In this document: positions 1 to 12,797 of the stretch, one piece after another
Numbering within the stretch: position 1 is the first letter of the stretch
Layout: every line of letters begins with the position of its first letter
Assembly (NCBI RefSeq): GCF_003544855.1
Contig: NZ_CP032101.1
Location: 1,178,001 to 1,242,000, forward strand
Length of the DNA stretch: 64,000 nucleotides
Direction: 5' to 3'
From: Malaciobacter marinus
GTDB taxonomy: Bacteria; Campylobacterota; Campylobacteria; Campylobacterales; Arcobacteraceae
Program-made: the position numbers and the translations under genes
The notes under the pieces: generated by a model
Database searches by the model: none
Seen by the model: only the letters and a program-made list of their open reading frames with translations
What the model was told of the DNA's origin: nothing

Positions 1-1
1 T

Positions 2-1615
2 AGAGCCAAACTAAAAGATGGGCAAGAGTGCTTTTTATGTGGTTCAAAAGAGCATCCATATATAAACCACTCTTTAAATATAGATACAGAGATAAGTCAA
101 ACACTAGCTAAAATAAAAGAGCAAGAAAGCTATCTACAAGAGCAAAACAGCGAACTAAACAAGGCTCAAATAAACCTAGCAAAACTTAGCTCAAAACTTG
201 AAAGCTCAAACCTAGAAATACAAAAACAACAAACTACAAAAGAGCAAATAGAAGAGTACTTCAAAACAAACGATTTCAAACTACAAGAAGACTCAAAAGC
301 CACACTACAAGAGCAAATGCAATTTTGCGAAAATGAGTTAAAAGAGTATGTAACTTTAAGAGAGCAAAAAGAGTCTTTACAAGCAAAAAAAGAGTCTCTA
401 CAAACATCTGTAAACAAAGAGCTACAAAAACAACAGCAGATAAACACAAGCATAAACACTATAAAAGAGTTAAAAGAGGAACAATCAAAACTAAAAGAAG
501 AGATAACAAAGCTTCAAACCCAAAGCAAAAGTATCTTAGATATAGAAGATTTAGACCTTTTTGAAAAAAATATCCAAGAGAGTTTAGACACTGTTTCAAA
601 ACACTTTAACAGTTTGCAAAACCATCTTTCAAGCCTAAAATCAAAAGATGAATCCCTATCAAAACAGATAATCCAATTAAACAAAAAACAAGAAGATGAT
701 AAACAAAACCTAGTACACATAAAAGAGAAGTTTGAGAAAGCTTTAGTAGAGTATGGCTTCAACTCACAAGAGGAGTTTGAAAAAGCAAACTTAGCAAAAG
801 AAGAGTTTGAAACCCTAACAAACCTATGCAAAACCATAGAAGAGAAATATACACAAATACAAACTCTAAAAACAGACACAAACAAAAAACTAAAGGAACA
901 CAAACTCTTAGAAAAAGAGATAAACCCAACAAATCAAAACAAAGATGATACAAACAAAGAGTTACAAAAACTACAAAGCACAATAGACCAACTACAAGAA
1001 ACCATAGGAAGCATCTCAAAAGAGTTAGAGATAAATACCCAAAATATAAAAAAATCAGAAGACAAAATAAAACAACTTGAAAAGAAAAAACAAGCCTTCC
1101 AAGTATGGGTAAAACTAAACGATATGATAGGCTCAAGCCAAGGGGACAAGTTCGCCAAATTTGCCCAAGGTATCACCCTAGACCAACTAATCTACCTAGC
1201 AAACAAACACCTAGAAATCTTAAGCCCAAGATATGAACTTCAAAGAAATACAGAATCAAACAAACTCTTAGATATAGAGATAATTGACGGCTTCCAAGGA
1301 GACGCAGTCCGAGGTGTAAATACACTCTCAGGGGGAGAAAGCTTCATAGTAAGTCTATCTTTAGCTTTAGGACTTTCAAGTCTAGCAAGCCAAAAGATAA
1401 GTATAGACTCACTTTTCCTAGATGAAGGGTTTGGAACACTAGATAGCGATAGCCTAGAACTAGCACTAAATGCACTAAATCAATTACAAAGCTCAGGAAA
1501 AATGGTAGGTGTGATTTCCCATGTGGAAGCACTAAAAGAGCGAATTCCATTGCAGATAAAGGTTGAGCCTAAGGGTGATGGGACGAGTGGTTTGGATTTG
1601 AATAATTTAATATAA
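2..1615 (+). CDS. sbcC: SbcC exonuclease subunit, 3' part
   Basis: This is the C-terminal part of the SbcC (Rad50-like) ATPase that works with SbcD on hairpins and DNA ends. The frame is open from base 2, so the gene starts upstream of the window. The zinc-hook CxxC is visible (Cys codons at 29-31 and 38-40, sequence ECFLCG). A long Gln/Lys/Glu-rich coiled coil follows to about base 1100. Then come the ABC signature LSGGES (1325-1342), a Walker B segment with FLDEGFGTLD near 1410-1443, and an H-loop in VISHVE. Codon use is A/C-rich up to about base 1500 and turns G/T-rich for the last 35 or so codons. The next gene starts 8 bp after the stop. Confidence 0.95.
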   Translation, partial: RAKLKDGQECFLCGSKEHPYINHSLNIDTEISQTLAKIKEQESYLQEQNSELNKAQINLAKLSSKLESSNLEIQKQQTTKEQIEEYFKTNDFKLQEDSKATLQEQMQFCENELKEYVTLREQKESLQAKKESLQTSVNKELQKQQQINTSINTIKELKEEQSKLKEEITKLQTQSKSILDIEDLDLFEKNIQESLDTVSKHFNSLQNHLSSLKSKDESLSKQIIQLNKKQEDDKQNLVHIKEKFEKALVEYGFNSQEEFEKANLAKEEFETLTNLCKTIEEKYTQIQTLKTDTNKKLKEHKLLEKEINPTNQNKDDTNKELQKLQSTIDQLQETIGSISKELEINTQNIKKSEDKIKQLEKKKQAFQVWVKLNDMIGSSQGDKFAKFAQGITLDQLIYLANKHLEILSPRYELQRNTESNKLLDIEIIDGFQGDAVRGVNTLSGGESFIVSLSLALGLSSLASQKISIDSLFLDEGFGTLDSDSLELALNALNQLQSSGKMVGVISHVEALKERIPLQIKVEPKGDGTSGLDLNNLI

Positions 1616-1623
1616 GGAACAAT

Positions 1624-3738
1624 ATGATTTTTAAAAATATTAGAGTTAAAAATTTTAAAGGATTAAAAGATATATCTACTCCTTTATCAGATTTTACTTG
1701 TGTAATAGGAGAAAATAATGCAGGGAAATCAACTTTTATACAAGCTTTATTACTTTTTATAAAAGGTACAAAATTAACACAAGATGATTTTTTTGATAAA
1801 GATAAGGATATCTTTATATTTGTGGAAATTGATAATATTAAAAAGAAAGATTTAGAACTAATTGATGAAATACATAGAGATAAGCTTGAAAAAAATATTG
1901 ATTTTGATGAAAAAGGTATTGGTAGTTTTAGGTTAGTAAGAAGATATTCTCATGTAGATTATTCTTCTAAATTAAAGAATATAAAGTTTGTTCCGAAAGA
2001 AAAGAAGTTTGAAAAAAAAGAAATAGATAATTTGCTAAAAAGTAAAAAAGGTGATGAATTAATTTCTACATTAAAATCTAATTATGCTGAAATAGATGAT
2101 GAAAAAATTGATAAGCTTAAAACACAAAAAGCAGCAAAAGAATTAATTGAAGAATATATCAATACATTATCTAAAGATGATTTAATAGAAAAAGATGTTC
2201 CTTTAGATACAGGAATTGATAATTCAATTAAAGCTTTATTTCCTGAACCCATTTATATTCCTGCTGTAAAAGATTTATCTGATGATATGAAGACAAAAGA
2301 TAGTGCATCTTTTGGAAAACTTCTAAATATACTTTTAGATGTTATTGAAGATGATTTAAATGAAGCAAAAAGCGTTTTTGAAGTATTAAGAACAAATTTA
2401 AATAAAATATATGATGATAATGGTAAGCTTATCTCAGATAAAAGGTTAGAAAAGGTAAAAAGAATTGAAAATACAATACAAAGAAATTTAAACCAGACAT
2501 TTAAGAACGTATCAATTGACTTAGAAGTTCCACCTCCAGAAATAAAAACTATTTTATCAACTGCAAATATAATTGCAAATGATGGAGTCAAAGGGCCAAT
2601 ACAAAATAAAGGTGATGGGTTTAAAAGAGCTATCACTTTTAGTATTCTAAGAAGTTATGTAGAATTGTCTCATTCTGAAGGTTGGCAAAAAGATAAAGAA
2701 CAATTTAAACAAAAAGATAGATTTCTATTTTTATTTGAAGAACCAGAGTTATACTTACATCCTAAAGCTCAGAATATTTTATTTGAAGCATTATCTAAAA
2801 TATCTGCTAATCATCAAATGATTGTATCTACTCATTCTCCACTTTTTTTCTCTTCTGATGCTACTAAAACTTTTATAAAAATAAAAAAAGTTGATGATGG
2901 GGAGAAATCATATTCTAAAACTTTACATATAGACTTGACTGAAATAAGTAATAAAGATAAGTTTCAATTAATTTCATTTGAAACTAGTAATCATGCATTT
3001 TTTTCAGATAGAGTTGTATTGGTTGAAGGGGATACTGAACTAATTGTACTTCCTCATATATCAAAAATAATTGATTCTAGATACGATTTTAAAAATAATT
3101 CAATTAACTTGGTCAAAATTAATGGAAAAGGAAGTTTTAAGAGATATAAAGATTTTTTTAAGAAGTTTGATTTAGATATATATTTTGTTGCAGATCTTGA
3201 TGTATTATTAGATGGTTTTGAAAAGTTAGAACCAAGTGATGAAATAAAAAAAGTTCACAGTGAGTTATTGTCAATTGTAAATGAAAAAGTAGTAAGTATT
3301 GATGTAAAACCTTTACCAACAAGAAAATATAAAGATAAATTATTAAAGAATAATAGTAAAAGTATATATGAACAAATAAAAGATGCCAGAAGTGATGATG
3401 ATAAAGAAAAAGTTTTAGAATTACTTGATGAATTATTTTCATTTGAACAGAAAAAGATTGAATTAGTTATTCTTCAAGATAAGGAAAATGAATTTAATGA
3501 TGTTGTTTTAAAAAAAAGAGAATTATTAAAACTACTAAGAAAAGAAAATATTTTTGTACTAGAATCAGGTGATATAGAATCTTATTATCCTGAAGGAATC
3601 GTTAGTGATGATAAGCCTACTCAAGGACAAAAGTATTGTGAAATCATTGATTCAAAAGAAAAACTTTTCGAAGAATACTCTAAAATAGATGAACAAAAAA
3701 TTGAATTTGAATTAATATTTGAACAAATTTTTGCTTAG
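1624..3738 (+). CDS. OLD-family ATP-dependent endonuclease (AAA + TOPRIM)
   Basis: A 704-residue overcoming-lysogenization-defect (OLD) family protein. It has an N-terminal ABC-type ATPase followed by a TOPRIM nuclease domain. Visible motifs are Walker A GENNAGKST at residues 29-37, Walker B with LFEEPE at about 370-375, a THSP H-loop at 403-406, the TOPRIM acidic motif VEGDTE with Glu468, and the DxD pair Asp524/Asp526 in VADLD. Family members cut or nick DNA and many act in phage defence (GajA of Gabija is one). No UvrD-like GajB gene follows. Instead a PD-(D/E)XK nuclease and an HNH nuclease follow with 9 and 16 bp gaps. Codon use is more AT-rich than in sbcC upstream and the DUF2779 gene downstream, which suggests a transferred cassette. 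The exact OLD class is not assigned. Confidence 0.9.
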   Translation: MIFKNIRVKNFKGLKDISTPLSDFTCVIGENNAGKSTFIQALLLFIKGTKLTQDDFFDKDKDIFIFVEIDNIKKKDLELIDEIHRDKLEKNIDFDEKGIGSFRLVRRYSHVDYSSKLKNIKFVPKEKKFEKKEIDNLLKSKKGDELISTLKSNYAEIDDEKIDKLKTQKAAKELIEEYINTLSKDDLIEKDVPLDTGIDNSIKALFPEPIYIPAVKDLSDDMKTKDSASFGKLLNILLDVIEDDLNEAKSVFEVLRTNLNKIYDDNGKLISDKRLEKVKRIENTIQRNLNQTFKNVSIDLEVPPPEIKTILSTANIIANDGVKGPIQNKGDGFKRAITFSILRSYVELSHSEGWQKDKEQFKQKDRFLFLFEEPELYLHPKAQNILFEALSKISANHQMIVSTHSPLFFSSDATKTFIKIKKVDDGEKSYSKTLHIDLTEISNKDKFQLISFETSNHAFFSDRVVLVEGDTELIVLPHISKIIDSRYDFKNNSINLVKINGKGSFKRYKDFFKKFDLDIYFVADLDVLLDGFEKLEPSDEIKKVHSELLSIVNEKVVSIDVKPLPTRKYKDKLLKNNSKSIYEQIKDARSDDDKEKVLELLDELFSFEQKKIELVILQDKENEFNDVVLKKRELLKLLRKENIFVLESGDIESYYPEGIVSDDKPTQGQKYCEIIDSKEKLFEEYSKIDEQKIEFELIFEQIFA

Positions 3739-3747
3739 GACACTAAA

Positions 3748-4824
3748 ATGAAAAAAAGTCAAATGAGAGGGTATTTATACGAAATATTTATTTCACATCT
3801 TTTACAGAAGAATGGTTTTCTAAAATGTACTCAAGGGTCTCAACAATTTATTGATATGGGAATAATATCTAATGATGGTGAAATTGAAGGACGTGGTACT
3901 CAACACCAAATTGATTTTATAGGTTTATATACTAGGAATATTCCTTTTGTTTTTCCTATTCGGTTATTAGGAGAATGTAAGTTTTGGGAAAAAAAGGTTG
4001 ATAAATCATTTATAAGACAATATATCGGTGTACACAAGGATATTTCGGAAAACTATATCTCTTCTATGAGAGGGAGAACAAATAGGTTTTTAGATGTACC
4101 TGTTATTTTCTCAGCAAGTGACTTTGATAAAGAAGCAGTAAATTTAGCTTGGGCACAAGGTATTAATTTAGTTTCTCATTCTAGGTTGCCAATATTAAAA
4201 AATATAATCGAAGTAATTAAAATAATTGTAGAAACTTTATATGATCATTATGATTATCAACCAATAAAAAGATTTGTGGAAAAATTTCTTAATGAGGAAG
4301 ATATTGAAATGAGTGAAACTTATTTAGATTTCATAACTAGATTTATTGAATATTTAAATAATAATTTAATTATCTTTGATATTGAGGATTTTGAAGATTC
4401 ATTAAGTAGGTTACAGAATAGCAGAATCAATACATTTCTATTTGCTACGAATGAGAAAGGAATTTTAATTAATTTAGTTAGTGAAGATACATTCCCAAAT
4501 AAAGATGATAATTTTAATGTAGATTTTTTTGAAACAGACTCAGAAGATTGTATGATTTATTTTGATGATGAAAATAGTGATGAAAATGGTGAAAGGGTAT
4601 TTTATATTACTTTAAATCGAGACTCCTCTCAAAGAAAATTTTATTTTCAAGCAAATAATGCTTTATTGAGTAAAGATTTTCCACAATTGTCTTTAAAGGA
4701 TAGAATGCAAAGAAAATTAAAGTATTTCTCTGAACTTTCAATAATTAAAGAAGTAAATGGTTTGACAAGAATAATAAAATTAAATGTTAATCTTGAAACA
4801 GTTATGCATAATAATGTAAGATAA
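3748..4824 (+). CDS. PD-(D/E)XK (Mrr-like) restriction endonuclease-like protein
   Basis: A 358-residue protein whose first 130 residues look like an Mrr/Holliday-junction-resolvase type nuclease fold. Asp56 (in HQIDFIG) and the Glu76-x-Lys78 pair (GECKFW) form the PD-(D/E)XK signature. The N-terminal helix resembles the usual start of this fold (RGYLYEIFISHLLQKNGF). A conserved-looking VPVIFSASDFDKEA segment near residue 120 fits the later core strand. The C-terminal 200 residues are acidic and unrecognised, and may recognise target or partner. The RBS AGGA lies just before the start. The gene sits between the OLD nuclease and the HNH gene on the same strand, so co-transcription is likely. 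I infer a defence effector; the nuclease call rests on motif only. Confidence 0.75.
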   Translation: MKKSQMRGYLYEIFISHLLQKNGFLKCTQGSQQFIDMGIISNDGEIEGRGTQHQIDFIGLYTRNIPFVFPIRLLGECKFWEKKVDKSFIRQYIGVHKDISENYISSMRGRTNRFLDVPVIFSASDFDKEAVNLAWAQGINLVSHSRLPILKNIIEVIKIIVETLYDHYDYQPIKRFVEKFLNEEDIEMSETYLDFITRFIEYLNNNLIIFDIEDFEDSLSRLQNSRINTFLFATNEKGILINLVSEDTFPNKDDNFNVDFFETDSEDCMIYFDDENSDENGERVFYITLNRDSSQRKFYFQANNALLSKDFPQLSLKDRMQRKLKYFSELSIIKEVNGLTRIIKLNVNLETVMHNNVR

Positions 4825-4840
4825 TTATCTAAGGACATAT

Positions 4841-6040
4841 ATGAGTAATAATATATTATTTGAAAACTTTATTAAATATGGTATTGATGAAGAATTATCA
4901 AAAAAATTAGTAGGTTTAGGTTTGACAGTTTCTAAATGTAAAGTGTTATCCCAGAATGATTTAAAAAATAAGTATAAACTAAATGAAAATGAAATATCTA
5001 TAGTAAAAACTTCTACAAAAAGACAACCTATTGATGAAAAAGTTGTTGATATACTATTAAAAAATAGCAATTATATATGTAATGTATGTAAAGGTGAAAA
5101 AAGTCATAGCTTTATAATTCATCATATTGAGGAGTATGAAAAATCACAAGATAACTCATATGATAATTTAATAGTATTATGTCCATCTGATCATGATCTT
5201 GCTCATAAACAAGGTGTTTCGTTAACAAATAAAATTTCAAAACCACAATTAAGAAAATTAAAAACTGAGTGGGAAGAAGAAGTTAGAAAAAAAAACGAGA
5301 TAAAAGCAAGTGAGAATATTAATATTAGAGATGAAGTAGTAGATTTCGTCAATATTCAAAGGTTAGAAGAACTAGCTTTATTAACTTTTAAAGAAATACC
5401 AGATACTTATGTAACTCCTTCTTTAAAAAATAAAAAAATTTTGAATAATGATGGTCTTTTTGATGAAGAATATGTAAGAAAAAATCTTTCATCTTCTCCT
5501 ATGCTATTTAGTTATATCAACGCAGGAGAAGGTATTCATTATTTAGAGTTATTAAGGAAAATAGCGAAGAAAAAGAATTTTATTGATATAAGAAGTTTTT
5601 TTAAAATACGTTCAATAAATAAAAAACAGATAAATGGTCAATATGTTTTTTTTACAGGAGGTTTTTATAGCCGTTCTGTAGGATTATCTTTAAAAGGCAA
5701 TGAACCATTAGTTATTTTTCATTATAAAAAGCAAAATATTAGAATTGAATGTAAAATAGATTCACAATATGCACTATCTCAATCAGCATTGGGAAGGTTA
5801 GGGGTAAAAACAGTTTATTCTATTTATGGTGTTGTTAAAAATACATTTAAAGATAAAGATAATATTTGGGTAATATCTATCAGTCCTTATATAGTTGGAT
5901 TTCCTGACGAATATTCTCGTATAGGTTCATTTTATTCTAATTATGAATTTGATGAAGAGCCATTTTTTGAAGATATTGAATTAGAAAACTCAAGTTTTGA
6001 TATCGATGAATGGCTTCAAGAAATTAAAGAAAAATCTTAA
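4841..6040 (+). CDS. HNH endonuclease family protein
   Basis: A 399-residue protein with a clear HNH (beta-beta-alpha metal) module: zinc cysteines Cys80 and Cys83 (YICNVC), the HH pair His94/His95, a central Asn near residue 109, and Cys114 with His118/His122 in LCPSDHDLAH. The first 60 residues are helical with a GLGLTVSKC segment that may be a small DNA-binding domain. Residues 150-399 are unrecognised and could bind target or partner. It is the last gene of the OLD/PD-(D/E)XK/HNH string, 16 bp after the previous stop with an AAGGA RBS. Acidic, AT-rich coding like its two upstream neighbours supports joint acquisition. Confidence 0.8.
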   Translation: MSNNILFENFIKYGIDEELSKKLVGLGLTVSKCKVLSQNDLKNKYKLNENEISIVKTSTKRQPIDEKVVDILLKNSNYICNVCKGEKSHSFIIHHIEEYEKSQDNSYDNLIVLCPSDHDLAHKQGVSLTNKISKPQLRKLKTEWEEEVRKKNEIKASENINIRDEVVDFVNIQRLEELALLTFKEIPDTYVTPSLKNKKILNNDGLFDEEYVRKNLSSSPMLFSYINAGEGIHYLELLRKIAKKKNFIDIRSFFKIRSINKKQINGQYVFFTGGFYSRSVGLSLKGNEPLVIFHYKKQNIRIECKIDSQYALSQSALGRLGVKTVYSIYGVVKNTFKDKDNIWVISISPYIVGFPDEYSRIGSFYSNYEFDEEPFFEDIELENSSFDIDEWLQEIKEKS

Positions 6041-6048
6041 GTATAAAT

Positions 6049-7524
6049 ATGAACCTATCTAAATCCCTCTACACAAAAGGTATCCAATGCCCAAAAGCAC
6101 TTTGGCTTAAAAAATATAAGCCAAGTGTTTTAACACCACCAGATGAACAAGCACAGGCTATATTTGAAACAGGAAATATAGTAGGAGATTTAGCTTGCGA
6201 GCTTTTCCCTGATGGTAGAGAAGTTTCATACACTACAAACTATGATGAGATGATATCTACTACAAAAGAGTGGATGGAAAAGGGTGTATCAAATATCTAT
6301 GAAGCTACTTTTAGTTATGAGGGTATACTTATCATGGTAGATATTTTAAAAGTAGAAAGTGATGGCGTATCTATCTATGAGGTTAAAAGTTCCACGGAGG
6401 TAAAAGATATATATCTTCATGATGTATCTATTCAGTATTATGTACTTCAAAACTTAGGCTTTAGTATAAAAAATGCAAGTGTAGTACATATAAACAATGA
6501 GTATGTAAGAGGTGAGTTTTTAGAGTTAGACAAGCTTTTTAAGATAGTTGATGTCACAAGTGAAGTGCAAAGTTTACAGTCAAATATTCCAAGCATATTA
6601 AAAGAGTTTGAAACTTACCTAGAAGACAAAGTAAATGAGCCAGATATAGATATAGGGAAACATTGTAATAAACCTTATGAGTGTGATGCCAAAAACTATT
6701 GTTGGAAAGTTCAAAGAAATATACCTGAGTACTCTATCTTTAATATTTTCAATCTAGGAAGTAAAAAGCAAATAGAATTATACAATCAAGGTATTATAGA
6801 TATAGAAGATATCCCTGAAGATTTTGATATGACTGCAAACCAAAAACAAGCAGTAGCAAACTACAAATCAAAAGCAAGTTATATAGACAAAGAAAATATC
6901 AAAGCCTTTTTACAAAACCTTACATACCCAATCTATCACTTAGACTTTGAAACCTACCAACAAGCCATACCACAATATAAAGGTATAAAACCCTTCGAGC
7001 AAATCCCTTTTCAATACTCACTTCATATTGAGTATGAAGATGGCACTTTGGAGCATAAAGAGTATTTGAGTAAAGATAGCGTAGATAGTAGATATGAGTT
7101 AGCGTTAAAACTATGTGAAGATATCCCAAGTGATGTTACAGTATTAGCTTACAATATGAGTTTTGAAAAAGGTGTGATAAAAAGACTTGCCAACCTTTTC
7201 CCAGATCTAAGTACTCACTTATTAGCCATAAATGAAAATATGCAAGACCTAATGGTACCTTTCCAAAAGAAATGGTATGTAACACCAAGTATGCAAGGAA
7301 GCTACTCTATCAAGTATGTATTGCCAGCACTTGTACCAGAGTTTGAAAAAGCCTACAAAGAGTTAGAAGGTGTACAAAATGGAAGCCAAGCTATGAATGC
7401 TTTTGCAAATCTTAGTAAACTAGATGAGGTAAGTAAAGAGAAGATGAGAATTTCACTTTTAGAGTATTGTAAACTTGATACTTTAGCTATGGTGAAGATA
7501 TTAGATAAATTAAAGGAGACATAA
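6049..7524 (+). CDS. DUF2779 protein: Cas4-like Fe-S nuclease fused to DEDD exonuclease-like domain
   Basis: A 491-residue protein. The N-terminal half resembles Cas4/AddB-type PD-(D/E)XK nucleases. It has Cys14 (GIQCPKALW), Asp98, Glu111 and Lys113 (YEVKSS), then Cys206, Cys212 and Cys218, giving the one-plus-three cysteine pattern of a 4Fe-4S nuclease. The C-terminal half (about 290-491, DUF2779) looks RNase H-like: LDFET with Asp299/Glu301, an AYNMSFEKG segment, and Asp477 in EYCKLDT, as in DEDD 3'-5' exonucleases. Its codon use (CTA, CCA, AAC) matches sbcC rather than the three genes in between, so it may originally have followed sbcC directly. No strong RBS is seen. Biochemical function is inferred. 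Confidence 0.8.
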   Translation: MNLSKSLYTKGIQCPKALWLKKYKPSVLTPPDEQAQAIFETGNIVGDLACELFPDGREVSYTTNYDEMISTTKEWMEKGVSNIYEATFSYEGILIMVDILKVESDGVSIYEVKSSTEVKDIYLHDVSIQYYVLQNLGFSIKNASVVHINNEYVRGEFLELDKLFKIVDVTSEVQSLQSNIPSILKEFETYLEDKVNEPDIDIGKHCNKPYECDAKNYCWKVQRNIPEYSIFNIFNLGSKKQIELYNQGIIDIEDIPEDFDMTANQKQAVANYKSKASYIDKENIKAFLQNLTYPIYHLDFETYQQAIPQYKGIKPFEQIPFQYSLHIEYEDGTLEHKEYLSKDSVDSRYELALKLCEDIPSDVTVLAYNMSFEKGVIKRLANLFPDLSTHLLAINENMQDLMVPFQKKWYVTPSMQGSYSIKYVLPALVPEFEKAYKELEGVQNGSQAMNAFANLSKLDEVSKEKMRISLLEYCKLDTLAMVKILDKLKET

Positions 7525-8462
7525 TGGCAGGAGCATATGCACACTTAACAATAGTAAATAAAGCATGTACGGAAAGTGAATTAGAAGAGTTAGGACTTAG
7601 TAATGATTCCCTCATAGCATTAGAAGAATATACAACTTTTATAGAGCTAGGTTCTGTTAGTCCAGATTATCCATATCTGGCAATTACAGAAAAACATAAA
7701 AAATGGGCAGACTCAATGCACCTAGATATGAAAACAAAATCTTTTATTTTAAAAGGTATTGAAGAAGTTAAAGCAATAGAAAATGAAGAAGATAAAAGAA
7801 AAGCTTTTGCCTGGCTTTGTGGACTTGCAGGGCATATTGTTACAGATGTAGTTATTCATCCTGTTGTTGAATTAAAAGTTGGTCCATACGAAGGAAATGA
7901 AGCAGAACACAGAAACTGTGAAATGCATCAAGATGTTTATATCTATAAAAAGATTACAGGATATGGAGACATTTCTGAAACTGAACAATTATCTTTGTTT
8001 GGTAAAGAGTGTAGTCAAGATGGTGATACTGACAAGCTAAATAAAGTTATCTCTTCAGTATGGGGGAAAATGCTTGAAGAATTAAATAAAGAAGAATACT
8101 TAAATAACAAACCAGAATTTGATACTTGGCATAGTAGATTTCATAATTTAGTATCGACAGTGGAAGAGACACAAAACTTTCCTACTATATCAAGACATGT
8201 AATAGGATTAGATGGTGGAATAATTTATCCTAAATCTGAGGAAGTAAATATTGAAGAGTATATTGAGAATTTAGAAGTTACAGGTAATAAAACTATGCAT
8301 TATGATGATATTTTCAATAAAGCTGTACTACAAGTACAACAAACTTGGAAAGTTTTAGATGAATCTGTATATGGCAATGGAAATAGTCATTTAGAATATT
8401 TTGCGGATTGGAACTTAGATAATGGTAGAACATCGTCTGATGAATTAGAGTATTGGGCATAA
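7524..8462 (+). CDS. zinc-dependent phospholipase C family protein
   Basis: A 312-residue protein resembling the zinc-dependent phospholipase C / S1-P1-like fold. Candidate metal ligands are the His in AYAHL (residue 7), Asp in GSVSPDYPY, His in DSMHLD, the HxxxD-x3-H arrangement in GLAGHIVTDVVIHP, and the His in CEMHQD. No signal peptide is present, so it is probably cytoplasmic, unlike secreted PlcC enzymes. The ATG overlaps the TAA of the DUF2779 gene by one base (TAATG) after an AAGGAG RBS, so translation is coupled. The substrate is unknown. In this nuclease-rich setting a membrane-damaging role is possible but not shown. Confidence 0.75.
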   Translation: MAGAYAHLTIVNKACTESELEELGLSNDSLIALEEYTTFIELGSVSPDYPYLAITEKHKKWADSMHLDMKTKSFILKGIEEVKAIENEEDKRKAFAWLCGLAGHIVTDVVIHPVVELKVGPYEGNEAEHRNCEMHQDVYIYKKITGYGDISETEQLSLFGKECSQDGDTDKLNKVISSVWGKMLEELNKEEYLNNKPEFDTWHSRFHNLVSTVEETQNFPTISRHVIGLDGGIIYPKSEEVNIEEYIENLEVTGNKTMHYDDIFNKAVLQVQQTWKVLDESVYGNGNSHLEYFADWNLDNGRTSSDELEYWA

Positions 8463-8473
8463 AAGGAAATAAA

Positions 8474-8860
8474 ATGAAGAAGATATTAATAAAAAGTTTA
8501 TTGATTGTTTTTGTAGCTAATTTAATTACTGGTTGCTCTTTAAAAAGTAATGACTTAATTGAATTAAAACCTAAGTTAAATAACCTAACAAAAAGAGCAA
8601 ATAGTGCAATCAAAAGAAGAGGTATTGAAGTATCTAAAGTAAATGAGTATTTGGCTACTAAAAATCCTATTTTAATAGAAAGTTTTAAAGATTATGATTT
8701 AAAGATTAAGTATGAAAATAAAATTACCATAGTTCTTGTATGTAAAGATGAAAAAGCACTTTATGAAGATTTGTCTTGTGATTTGAAAATTGATAAAGAC
8801 TATACAAAAGAAGATAAATTATGTGATTTTCATATCATAAACCCTAGTTGTGATAAGTAA
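8474..8860 (+). CDS. small lipoprotein, unknown function
   Basis: A 128-residue protein starting MKKILIKSLL with a hydrophobic signal and a lipobox ending ITGC (Cys about residue 20), so it should be lipidated and anchored in the envelope. The ATG at 8474 is chosen over an upstream in-frame start because an AAGGA RBS lies at 8463-8467. Three further cysteines sit in the C-terminal third (about Cys90, Cys99, Cys117 and a final one), which may form disulphides. I do not recognise the family. It lies 11 bp after the phospholipase-like gene and ends before the large helicase, on the same strand. Confidence 0.75.
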   Translation: MKKILIKSLLIVFVANLITGCSLKSNDLIELKPKLNNLTKRANSAIKRRGIEVSKVNEYLATKNPILIESFKDYDLKIKYENKITIVLVCKDEKALYEDLSCDLKIDKDYTKEDKLCDFHIINPSCDK

Positions 8861-8888
8861 ATATATATATAAAGGACAATATAGAAAT

Positions 8889-11800
8889 ATGAAAAAAGAA
8901 GAGTTTTTAAACAATTTATTTAAATATTATGATTTAGCACTTAGAATTGACAATGTTCTTGGAACAAAATATACAAAAAAACAGATATCTTCATATCATG
9001 TAAGTGAGAAAATTGATAAAGTATATAATGAAAAGCTAGAAAAGAGTCATTATTTTTCATTGGATAGTGATTTTAAAAATAGTTTTTTGCCTATTGAATA
9101 TCTTAGTGAAGATACAATAGAATCGTTTATCCATGAAGTCTCATATTTTGAAAGAACTGTAAATTTTGAAGGACAAAAACTTAAAAAAAGATATGATCCT
9201 CAAAATATCTATGAACATAATAAATTTATTTTTTCAAAAGACTCAAACTTCTTTCAATATGGAATAGCATTTAATCTTTTAAAAGAAAATCCTTTTTCTA
9301 ATTATTCTAAGTTTGTTCCTTCTTTTGTGATACTTTTTCCAAACTATGACGAAGAGTTTAATTTTTTGACACCAGATAAAATATTTATTGAGATAAAAAG
9401 ATACCTAGGATATAGCTTGACAGAAGATGAAGAAGAGTTTTCTTGTGAGATAAAGCCTTATTTGTTATTTAATCCAAAAATACTTGAACCATATTTTTTA
9501 GAAACGCCAGATATTAAATTGTCATCATTTGAAGATACTCAAAAGCAAATAATTAAATTTTTAGAGCCTATTCTTGAATTAGATAAATATAATATAGAAA
9601 AAGAGTTTCAAGATAAAGCTTTTATCATTGGAATTTCTCAAAATCTAAATATGGGATTGACAAAAATATATGATACTATTTTTGAACATCAAAATATTAA
9701 TAGTTTAATAAAGTCATACTTTAAAGTACATAGAAGAAAAAGCAATGACATAATCTATCCCAAAATAGAAAAAAGTGAGATTATAACTACAAAGAAAATT
9801 GTAAATTCTTATTCTTCTCATTTTGGTTCTTTTGATAAAGAGTATTCTTTAGCACAAACACAAAGAGAAGCATTGAGTTGTTATCTTGAAGATAAAAAAG
9901 TATTACCTGTAAATGGTGCACCAGGAACAGGTAAAACTTCATTATTGAGAGGTATATTTGGTGATTATACAGTAAAAGCAGCTATTAAAAGTTATGAAAG
10001 TTATTTAAAAGAGAAAGTTGTTTTATTTTCTACTCCTATAGTTTGCTCCTCTACAAACAATCAAGCCTTAACAAATATTTCTGAGGGAATAGACTCAGGC
10101 TTTATTGAAACTTCTAAAAAGAACGAGAGCAATTTATATAAAAGATGGTTGACTGATGATGTTAAATTAGAAAAAAAGACTATAAACTTTAATAATAACT
10201 TGTTTGTTCCTTCTGTTAGAAGTACAGTAAAGAGAACATATGAACTCTCTAAAAATGATATGAAAACAGTAGGAAATATAATATCAAAAAATCCTCTAAC
10301 TTTTATAAATGAATACTTTAAATATAGAAAAATAGATATGTTTTGTGAAAAAGTTGATAAAAGAACTTTAGACCTTTTAAATAAAGCTGCAAGGTTTTTC
10401 TTTAATAAAATAAATGAAAACATAGAAGAATTAAAAAGTTTAACATCTCTTATTCAAGATAAAGTAGATGAATTAACCAAGATTGAACTACATCTAGTAA
10501 CAAAATATATAGAAAAAGGTATTCAAGAAGATCTTATAAAAGCTACACTTTTTGAAATAAAAGAGCATTCAGAAAAACTTTCTTCTTCATTGGATAGGTT
10601 AAGGTCTTTTGAAAAAGAGTATAAACAAATAGAAAAAAATATACAAAATTTAAAAAACAGAATAAAAGAGTATAAAGAAGAAGCCTTAGAGATTGAAGAT
10701 TCTATATCTTTAAGCGCAAGTGAAATTGAGGTTATAGATAAACAAATAAAAATAGAACAATCTTATTTAAATGATTATAAAATATCTCCATATTATAGTA
10801 GTTGCTATGAAGAGATTAAATATAAATATAGAGATGACTTTACTAATGAAAAAAATAATATAAAAGAAGTTTTAAAAACTGATATTGAAAAAGTATTTAA
10901 AAATGCTAATATATTAGAAAAACTTTCTTATGGGCTTTTAAAAAAAGGCGCTATAAAAGATAAGATTGAACTATTAAATAATTTATCCCAAGAACAATTA
11001 TCTAATCTTAATACTACTTTCTATGAGCAAGATTTTTTTATAAATGATTTAAAAGAAAATATATCAAATAAACATAGTAAGGTTATTAAAAAACTAAAAG
11101 AAAAATTAAGTAAAATTGATGCAAATATTACTAAATTTAGTGTAAAACATAGTGAATTAAAATTAGAGATATATCAATTAGAAAATGAAGTAGATGATAA
11201 AGATATTAAATTATATCAAATAGAAAACTTATTAGATAAAGAGTTTGGTATTTTATCAAATGATATTTTTGAGTTTGAAGATATTGAAAGACTAATTGAA
11301 TTTGAGGATACATATAAACAACTTGCTAGATTAAATGAAAAAAATGAAAGATATGATACTACACAAAGAACAGATAACTTTTATTTTGCTTTACATCTTT
11401 TAGAAGCACTATATTTTATATCAAATACAAATATGTGGAATACTAAAATAGAGTTAAATAATTTTGATAATAAAGTTATCAAGTGTCCTATATGTCATGA
11501 AGGTTCTATGGTTCAACGTGATAGTGTAATTAAATGTTCAAAGTGTGATAGAAAGTTTTCTTTTAATAATAAGTATTTACCTAAAGAATTAGATGAAGAA
11601 AAAATTTTATATATATTAAAAAATTCAAAAGCTACTATTGATGAAATTTCATACTATGTTAACGCAACAGAAGATTTTATAAATATTTCTACAAACGATA
11701 CAAATAATGATGAACTTTTTAGCAGTTTATATCCTATTTTTCCTATTATAAATATCACTTGTAATAGTTTTGGTACAATAGTTTCTAATAGAAATGATAC

Positions 11801-12797
11801 TTATATAAAAGAAAATATTTTTGACTTTTTATTAATCGATGAAGCAGGTACGATACCTCCTTCTAAAATGATAATATTAAACTGTGCCAAAAAAGTGATG
11901 CTATTTGGAGATACTAAACAATTAAAACCTGTCTTTTCTTATGATACTAAAATTGAAAATAGAATATTAGAAGACTTTTACTCTTCAAAAAAAGATATAA
12001 GTATTGTTTCAAAATATTTCTCATGTGCTTCTAAAATGAGTAATGAACCGATAATCAAAAAAAACAATAACTCAATGGATATAGCTAATTCAAGTGTTAC
12101 TTATTTCCTTCCTTATAATAAAAGTAAAATGGAAGGTGATATTTGGTTAAAAGAACATTTTAGATGTCAAACTCCTATTGTTCAAATCTCAAATGAAATA
12201 TCATATTTTAATGAAATTAAACCATTAAAAAAAGATAAATATCATGATAAGAGTTGGAGTACATTGTTATTTATAGAACATGAACATCAAAAAAGCTCAT
12301 ATAATACAAATCAAGGTGAAATTGAAGAAATTATAAACTTTATTATAGATAGAAAAGAACGTTATATTAATGAGTTTTTAAAACGAATTAAAAATAAAGA
12401 GGAAATTACTGATGAGGATTATTATAATTCAATAGGAATTATTACACCATTTGTAAATCAAGAAAATTTATTAAAAAAAGAAATTATTAATAAAATTGGA
12501 AGCCATAAAGACGATGCTAAAGAACCAATTATTAAAGTAGGTACTGTGCATAAATATCAAGGTTCTGAAAGAGATATAATAATTTTTTCATCCGTTTATA
12601 ATAAAGAAAATCAAGGGAAAGCCCAAAATCTATTTTTTAATAGAGATGAACCTGATATGATAAATGTTGCAGTAACTAGAGCAAAAGAAATATTTGTACT
12701 ATTTGGGAATAGAAATACAATATCAAATAGTGAAACTTTTTCTGGAGTGATGGTAAAACATATTGATGAATATAAAAACAAAAAGACAAAAAAATAA
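8889..12797 (+). CDS. large SF1B (UPF1/DNA2-like) helicase with coiled-coil and zinc-ribbon insert
   Basis: A 1302-residue ATPase. The motor domain is split: Walker A GAPGTGKT at residues 343-350, Walker B LLIDEAG with Asp984/Glu985, motif III GDTKQLKPV, motif IV-like HFRCQTPI, motif V GTVHKYQGSE, and motif VI VAVTRAKE (Arg1264). About 600 residues of mostly coiled-coil sequence (roughly 480-840) separate Walker A from Walker B. Behind them is a zinc ribbon with Cys866/Cys869 and Cys883/Cys886. The first 300 residues are unrecognised. Motif order fits superfamily 1B helicases used in RNA or DNA transactions and in several phage-defence systems. ATG 8889 is preferred over GTG 8850 because AAAGGAC precedes it; the spacing of 12 is a little long. 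Confidence 0.85.
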   Translation: MKKEEFLNNLFKYYDLALRIDNVLGTKYTKKQISSYHVSEKIDKVYNEKLEKSHYFSLDSDFKNSFLPIEYLSEDTIESFIHEVSYFERTVNFEGQKLKKRYDPQNIYEHNKFIFSKDSNFFQYGIAFNLLKENPFSNYSKFVPSFVILFPNYDEEFNFLTPDKIFIEIKRYLGYSLTEDEEEFSCEIKPYLLFNPKILEPYFLETPDIKLSSFEDTQKQIIKFLEPILELDKYNIEKEFQDKAFIIGISQNLNMGLTKIYDTIFEHQNINSLIKSYFKVHRRKSNDIIYPKIEKSEIITTKKIVNSYSSHFGSFDKEYSLAQTQREALSCYLEDKKVLPVNGAPGTGKTSLLRGIFGDYTVKAAIKSYESYLKEKVVLFSTPIVCSSTNNQALTNISEGIDSGFIETSKKNESNLYKRWLTDDVKLEKKTINFNNNLFVPSVRSTVKRTYELSKNDMKTVGNIISKNPLTFINEYFKYRKIDMFCEKVDKRTLDLLNKAARFFFNKINENIEELKSLTSLIQDKVDELTKIELHLVTKYIEKGIQEDLIKATLFEIKEHSEKLSSSLDRLRSFEKEYKQIEKNIQNLKNRIKEYKEEALEIEDSISLSASEIEVIDKQIKIEQSYLNDYKISPYYSSCYEEIKYKYRDDFTNEKNNIKEVLKTDIEKVFKNANILEKLSYGLLKKGAIKDKIELLNNLSQEQLSNLNTTFYEQDFFINDLKENISNKHSKVIKKLKEKLSKIDANITKFSVKHSELKLEIYQLENEVDDKDIKLYQIENLLDKEFGILSNDIFEFEDIERLIEFEDTYKQLARLNEKNERYDTTQRTDNFYFALHLLEALYFISNTNMWNTKIELNNFDNKVIKCPICHEGSMVQRDSVIKCSKCDRKFSFNNKYLPKELDEEKILYILKNSKATIDEISYYVNATEDFINISTNDTNNDELFSSLYPIFPIINITCNSFGTIVSNRNDTYIKENIFDFLLIDEAGTIPPSKMIILNCAKKVMLFGDTKQLKPVFSYDTKIENRILEDFYSSKKDISIVSKYFSCASKMSNEPIIKKNNNSMDIANSSVTYFLPYNKSKMEGDIWLKEHFRCQTPIVQISNEISYFNEIKPLKKDKYHDKSWSTLLFIEHEHQKSSYNTNQGEIEEIINFIIDRKERYINEFLKRIKNKEEITDEDYYNSIGIITPFVNQENLLKKEIINKIGSHKDDAKEPIIKVGTVHKYQGSERDIIIFSSVYNKENQGKAQNLFFNRDEPDMINVAVTRAKEIFVLFGNRNTISNSETFSGVMVKHIDEYKNKKTKK

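What the first reader, a model, noticed from the sequence alone, without database searches (positions are those of the whole stretch)
8889..12797. SF1B helicase with about 600 residues inserted between Walker A and Walker B
Walker A is at 343-350 but Walker B is at 984. The insert contains coiled coil and then a Cys4 zinc ribbon (866-886). Such a coiled-coil insert in the motor core is unusual and suggests an SMC-like arm or oligomerisation.
Basis: seen in the sequence. Interest (0 to 1): 0.6.

Follow-up and report, generated by a model that had tools for sequence, protein, structure and literature searches.

The report
UPF1-like defence helicase with coiled-coil insert
The gene encodes a UPF1-type helicase whose motor is split by a long helical arm and a zinc ribbon; the split is real, but a long insert at this place is a known, common feature of bacterial UPF1-like defence helicases, so it is mostly ordinary.

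Summary
The insert is real and conserved in orthologues. It is not unusual. In a core tree, 33 relatives from several phyla form one supported clade, all with a Walker A-B gap of 377-645 residues; canonical UPF1-like proteins fetched alongside have 113-137. PLD-bearing Mokosh type II helicases (MkoC) have 385-464. Particular here is a six-member Zn-ribbon clade without the PLD nuclease that defines MkoC, with longer coiled-coil stretches. Most likely it is a PLD-less, Mokosh-II-like 5'-3' motor in a defence island, its arm docking a nuclease; the nearest candidate is the upstream DUF2779 protein. Defence role and docking are inferred. In passing: in 24 of 29 Arcobacteraceae genomes with this sbcC, DUF2779 or its 5' remnant lies 2.7-8.3 kb downstream, with swapped cargo between.

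The parts
8889..12797 (+). UPF1-like SF1B helicase, 1302 aa (alternative GTG start 8850)
9915..9938 (+). Walker A GAPGTGKT, aa 343-350
10116..11723 (+). Insert between motif Ia and the strand before Walker B, aa about 410-945
10527..10781 (+). Long predicted helix, ascending arm, aa 547-631
10950..11294 (+). Long predicted helix, descending arm, aa 688-802
11484..11546 (+). Cys4 zinc ribbon CPIC...CSKC, aa 866-886, kept in the clade (second Cys of each pair invariant in A2)
11838..11849 (+). Walker B DEAG, aa 984-987
11907..11924 (+). Motif III GDTKQL, aa 1007-1012
12537..12683 (+). Motifs V and VI, VGTVH..VAVTRA, aa 1217-1265
6049..7524 (+). DUF2779 protein: Cas4/RecB-like N-terminal half (C14, EVKS 111, C206/C212/C218) plus DEDD exonuclease fold; candidate nuclease partner
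   Evidence: PMC3985635
7524..8860 (+). Zn-dependent phospholipase C-like gene and small lipoprotein-like gene, a pair lying between DUF2779 and helicase and absent at that place in sister genome G078
1624..6040 (+). Cargo between sbcC and DUF2779: OLD-family nuclease, unknown 358-aa protein, HNH endonuclease
1..1615 (+). 3' part of sbcC, cut by the window edge (full gene with sbcD upstream)

Best explanation
An accessory, horizontally moving UPF1-like (SF1B) helicase of the Mokosh-II/CnuH-related group, lacking its own nuclease domain. The two RecA domains form a motor predicted, from its relatives, to run 5' to 3' on single-stranded RNA or DNA. Between motif Ia and Walker B, roughly where UPF1 and Sen1 carry subdomain 1C/prong, sits an enlarged helical insert: a long coiled-coil hairpin of about 500 residues closed by a Cys4 zinc ribbon next to Walker B. 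The hairpin most likely reaches away from the motor to bind a partner (probably a nuclease, DUF2779 being the nearest candidate), with the ribbon holding the base of the arm or touching nucleic acid, so that ATP-driven movement is coupled to cleavage of invader nucleic acid. Shown: motor family, insert, ribbon conservation, clade, mobility, defence-island setting. Inferred: polarity, substrate, docking, antiphage role.
For: AAA_12 1.6e-22 and AAA_11 9.5e-9; core fold matches Upf1, Sen1, Dna2, Ighmbp2 (Foldseek E 3.5e-12 to 1e-9; Z 18-20). PADLOC MkoC 8e-100, 333 bits, in three stretches and without the PLD part. Tree: 33 long-insert rows 99/98, the Zn-ribbon clade 100/100, separate from the mainly PLD-bearing clade 100/99. 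Precedent: CnuH insertion proposed to contact the CnuE nuclease (PMC11090510). DUF2779 lies directly upstream of the orthologue on two Aliarcobacter plasmids and of its deleted remnant in G078; a 3' scar of DUF2779 precedes it in G064. In 12 of about 24 Arcobacteraceae genomes with MkoC-type helicases the helicase is within 10 kb of DUF2779 or its 5' remnant. Neighbours are defence genes: OLD and HNH in the window, Mokosh I (MkoA 7e-186, MkoB 2e-52) and NACHT on the plasmids.
Against: No experiment. DUF2779 is not obligatory: the helicase stands alone in G014 and on the Hydrogenimonas plasmid, and lies in a type I restriction locus in G058. DUF2779 neighbours many unrelated cargos, so adjacency may reflect a shared insertion site. 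The structure model is of middling confidence. True MkoC inserts are shorter and mostly less coiled-coil-like.
Confidence: 0.55

Rival explanations
1. The arm works like an SMC/Rad50 arm: two helicases meet through their coiled coils and bridge two nucleic-acid segments or ends.
For: Two long helices with proline-free runs; weak Foldseek match to Rad50 (E 2.7e-3) and weak NCBIfam match to an SMC-related protein at 360-839 (3e-7); SbcCD is a frequent neighbour.
Against: No hinge or hook motif seen at the tip; the zinc ribbon is at the base next to Walker B, not at the tip as the Rad50 hook is; low-complexity coiled coils match each other by composition.
Confidence: 0.15
2. A DNA-repair helicase rather than a defence protein: with SbcCD and the Cas4-like/DEDD DUF2779 protein it forms a split Dna2-like end-processing machine.
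For: Core fold matches Dna2; COG2251 proteins fuse the same two nuclease folds to AAA domains (PMC3985635); SbcCD and DUF2779 share the locus.
Against: Orthologues in only 6 of 104 genomes of the family, with plasmid copies, deleted in sister G078, surrounded by changing defence genes: an accessory pattern.
Confidence: 0.2
3. A HelD-like factor: the coiled-coil insert enters RNA polymerase or another machine and the helicase dislodges it.
For: HelD is an SF1 motor with long coiled-coil insertions (own knowledge); HelD chains are among the VIA core matches (Z about 18).
Against: HelD is SF1A/UvrD-like; this protein has UPF1-family motifs and groups with MkoC.
Confidence: 0.05

Closest known systems
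Mokosh type II helicase MkoC (PADLOC PDLC03924)
   Same: UPF1-like core, large insert between Walker A and B (385-464 residues), best family hit 8e-100
   Different: No C-terminal PLD nuclease; Zn ribbon before Walker B; gap about 170-250 residues longer; separate supported clade
CnuH of type II/III CoCoNuT systems (PMC11090510)
   Same: UPF1-like SF1 helicase with a large helical, partly coiled-coil insertion after Walker A
   Different: No CnuB/CnuC or wHTH CnuE genes recognised beside it; no sequence of CnuH was compared here
Eukaryotic UPF1/SEN1/DNA2
   Same: SF1B motor fold and motifs
   Different: Their Walker A-B spacing is short (about 140 in UPF1, own knowledge; 113-137 in the canonical relatives fetched here); Dna2's Cas4-like nuclease is fused, here it would be a separate gene
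HelD
   Same: SF1 motor with coiled-coil insertions
   Different: SF1A, binds RNA polymerase, different motifs (own knowledge)

Membership tests
UPF1-like SF1B helicase (COG1112 type) | SF1 motifs I, II (DEAG), III, V, VI with AAA_11/AAA_12 domains and UPF1-like fold | tested here: met
Mokosh type II (MkoC) | Similarity to MkoC over the helicase part | tested here: met
   8e-100, 333 bits in three stretches
Mokosh type II (MkoC) | C-terminal PLD nuclease with HKD motif | tested here: not met
   protein ends about 40 residues after motif VI; no PLDc hit, whereas L060, L062, L063 and L074 have one
Mokosh type I (MkoA) | N-terminal Ser/Thr kinase domain and MkoB neighbour | tested here: not met
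   no kinase hit and no MkoB hit among the window neighbours scanned
CoCoNuT CnuH | Large helical insert after Walker A, partly coiled coil | tested here: met
CoCoNuT CnuH | Encoded with CnuB (McrB GTPase) and CnuC | tested here: not met
   no McrB/McrC hit among the ten window proteins scanned
SMC/Rad50-like arm | Antiparallel coiled coil with dimerising hinge or hook at the tip | tested here: inconclusive
   helices predicted, geometry not measurable, no hook motif seen at the tip

The most novel reading that the evidence does not exclude
The helicase belongs to a modular defence platform of Arcobacteraceae: a constant frame of sbcD-sbcC and the DUF2779 nuclease with exchangeable cores (OLD/HNH, Mokosh I, ABC-3C, other helicases), in which the coiled-coil arm plugs UPF1-like motors into the shared DUF2779 nuclease, and the 5' end of DUF2779 serves as the recombination site by which cores are swapped.
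Probability: 0.15. Interest if true: 0.65.

Novelty: new variant of a known kind. Interest (0 to 1): 0.3.

Why it matters
It shows that a split motor core is the rule, not an oddity, in bacterial UPF1-like defence helicases, and it defines a Zn-ribbon clade that lacks the PLD nuclease of Mokosh II. If the arm docks DUF2779, it would show how nuclease-less members get their cutting partner. The frame of sbcC and DUF2779 with swapped defence cargo is a tractable hotspot for further study.

Tried and rejected
Frameshift or gene-fusion artefact: rejected, orthologues keep the spacing. SbcC as a fragment: rejected, it is cut by the window edge. Strict DUF2779 partnership: weakened, because DUF2779 also borders other cargos and is absent beside several members. 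First fold job (residues 103-1302, 12 sequences) gave mean pLDDT 48 and was not used for claims; the second (305-1302, 16 sequences) gave 62. PDB sequence searches found no Mokosh or CnuH structure. The genome-contig scan found one locus only; the first viral scan with the broad alignment found one. Literature searches found no description of this locus, but only open-licence papers are held. Absence of a further fold match for the arm was not taken as novelty.

Full report
Observation. The ORF at 8850-12797 (+) is intact; the ATG at 8889 gives 1302 residues. Orthologues with 91, 55 and 50% identity keep the same spacing, 637-642 residues, so it is no assembly error.

What the protein is. Pfam finds AAA_12 and AAA_11. 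The best defence-family hit is MkoC of Mokosh type II, 8e-100, but the match stops before the PLD nuclease and the protein ends about 40 residues after motif VI. The modelled core matches Upf1, Sen1, Dna2 and Ighmbp2. It is an SF1B UPF1-like helicase.

Is the insert unusual? No. Relatives from Campylobacterota genomes, plasmids of several phyla and viral contigs were measured. Canonical UPF1-like proteins in the set have 113-137 residues between Walker A and B; the MkoC-like group has 377-645. MkoC proteins carrying the PLD domain have 385-464; four of them score 1000-1500 bits against the MkoC model. In a tree of helicase cores with the insert removed, 33 long-insert rows form one group (99/98), the window's six-member clade is 100/100, and a mainly PLD-bearing group is 100/99; some members of that last group also lack the PLD domain, and one PLD-bearing protein (L062) branches elsewhere. 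A viral-contig relative outside this group (L095, a long branch whose place is unsure) has an even longer gap, 697. The literature already describes the feature: CnuH helicases of type II and III CoCoNuTs contain, following Walker A, a large helical insertion partly predicted to be coiled coil, proposed to contact the CnuE nuclease (PMC11090510).

What is particular. The window clade has a Cys4 zinc ribbon just before Walker B (the second Cys of each pair invariant in alignment A2). The ribbon also occurs in relatives with shorter gaps in other Campylobacterales families, so it is probably older than the full-length arm. The coiled-coil character is stronger here (longest proline-free run 232) than in the MkoC proteins with PLD (72-148). 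AlphaFold2 predicts helices 547-631 and 688-802, compatible with an antiparallel hairpin; mean pLDDT is 62, so this is moderate evidence, and I could not inspect coordinates.

Setting. The host genome is Arcobacteraceae (2.9 Mb, one contig; family inferred from the relatives). The helicase occurs once there, and near full-length orthologues or clade relatives occur in 6 of 104 genomes of the family. It lies downstream of sbcD, sbcC, an OLD nuclease, an unknown protein, an HNH protein, DUF2779, a phospholipase C-like protein and a small lipoprotein-like protein. On the Aliarcobacter faecis plasmid the orthologue follows Mokosh type I (MkoA 7e-186, MkoB 2e-52) and DUF2779; on the A. cryaerophilus plasmid it follows sbcCD, a NACHT protein and DUF2779, though there the helicase gene is split by a frameshift. 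In sister genome G078 the helicase is deleted except codons 1-58, directly behind DUF2779, and the phospholipase/lipoprotein pair is absent; in G064 a 45-bp 3' scar of DUF2779 stands before the 91% orthologue. This shows ancestral adjacency, dispensability and mobility.

DUF2779. It carries a Cas4-like arrangement (C14, EVKS at 111, C206, C212, C218) and DEDD exonuclease motifs, in line with its assignment to the 3'-5' exonuclease clade with an N-terminal DUF83 domain (PMC3985635). In 12 of about 24 Arcobacteraceae genomes with MkoC-type helicases the helicase is within 10 kb of DUF2779 or its 5' remnant (counted by hand from the listed places, leaving out PLD-only hits and weak hits in roughly 800-residue proteins); chance would give well under one. 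This makes it the best candidate partner but does not prove partnership, because DUF2779 borders many cargos.

Mechanism. Most likely the motor pulls single-stranded nucleic acid 5' to 3' (polarity from family knowledge), and the arm brings a nuclease or another partner to it. Motor identity, insert, ribbon and setting are shown; polarity, substrate, docking and antiphage function are inferred.

Passing result. Of 29 genomes with this sbcC, 24 carry DUF2779 or its 5' remnant 2.7-8.3 kb downstream on the same strand, with different genes between (counted by hand; of the other five, three lack DUF2779 and two have it on another contig). Cargo includes OLD proteins, an ABC-3C set and Mokosh I. 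Short 5' copies of DUF2779 (77 or 126 bp) are left between cargos, and the first 75 bp of the gene are more conserved than the rest (94% against 79-89%). This looks like a recombination hotspot and deserves its own study.

Noticed in passing
window 1-7524; L106, L107, L108, L109, L110, L111, L114, L116, L117, L118: Hotspot framed by sbcD-sbcC and DUF2779, genes codirectional, with swapped defence cargo between: 24 of 29 Arcobacteraceae genomes with this sbcC have DUF2779 or its 5' remnant 2.7-8.3 kb downstream.
   Followed up: partly
L013 1757-1833; L106 5177-5259 and L107 5197-5287 (oriented along DUF2779); L023 and L108 126-bp copies: 5' remnants of DUF2779 ending at the same place (77 bp before MkoA in three genomes, 126 bp before an 896-aa helicase in two) mark cargo insertions; the first 75 bp of DUF2779 are more conserved than the rest.
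   Followed up: partly
L023 (G078): Natural deletion of the helicase leaving codons 1-58 behind an intact DUF2779 gene.
   Followed up: yes
window 7524-8860; L110 7314-8650: The phospholipase C-like plus lipoprotein-like pair seems to move together: it also follows a decayed DUF2779 copy in G032.
   Followed up: no
L014 8001-11923: The orthologous helicase on the A. cryaerophilus plasmid is split by a frameshift in the coiled-coil region.
   Followed up: partly
L013 12059-13504; L014 12058-13503; L112 9827-11269: A dGTPase gene directly follows the helicase on both Aliarcobacter plasmids, and a dGTPase-looking ORF follows a different MkoC-like helicase in G102 (the last judged by eye only).
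   Followed up: no
L016 1934-6914: ORFs that look like a type I restriction-modification locus lie about 8 kb upstream of sbcD in the host genome (by eye, no family search).
   Followed up: no
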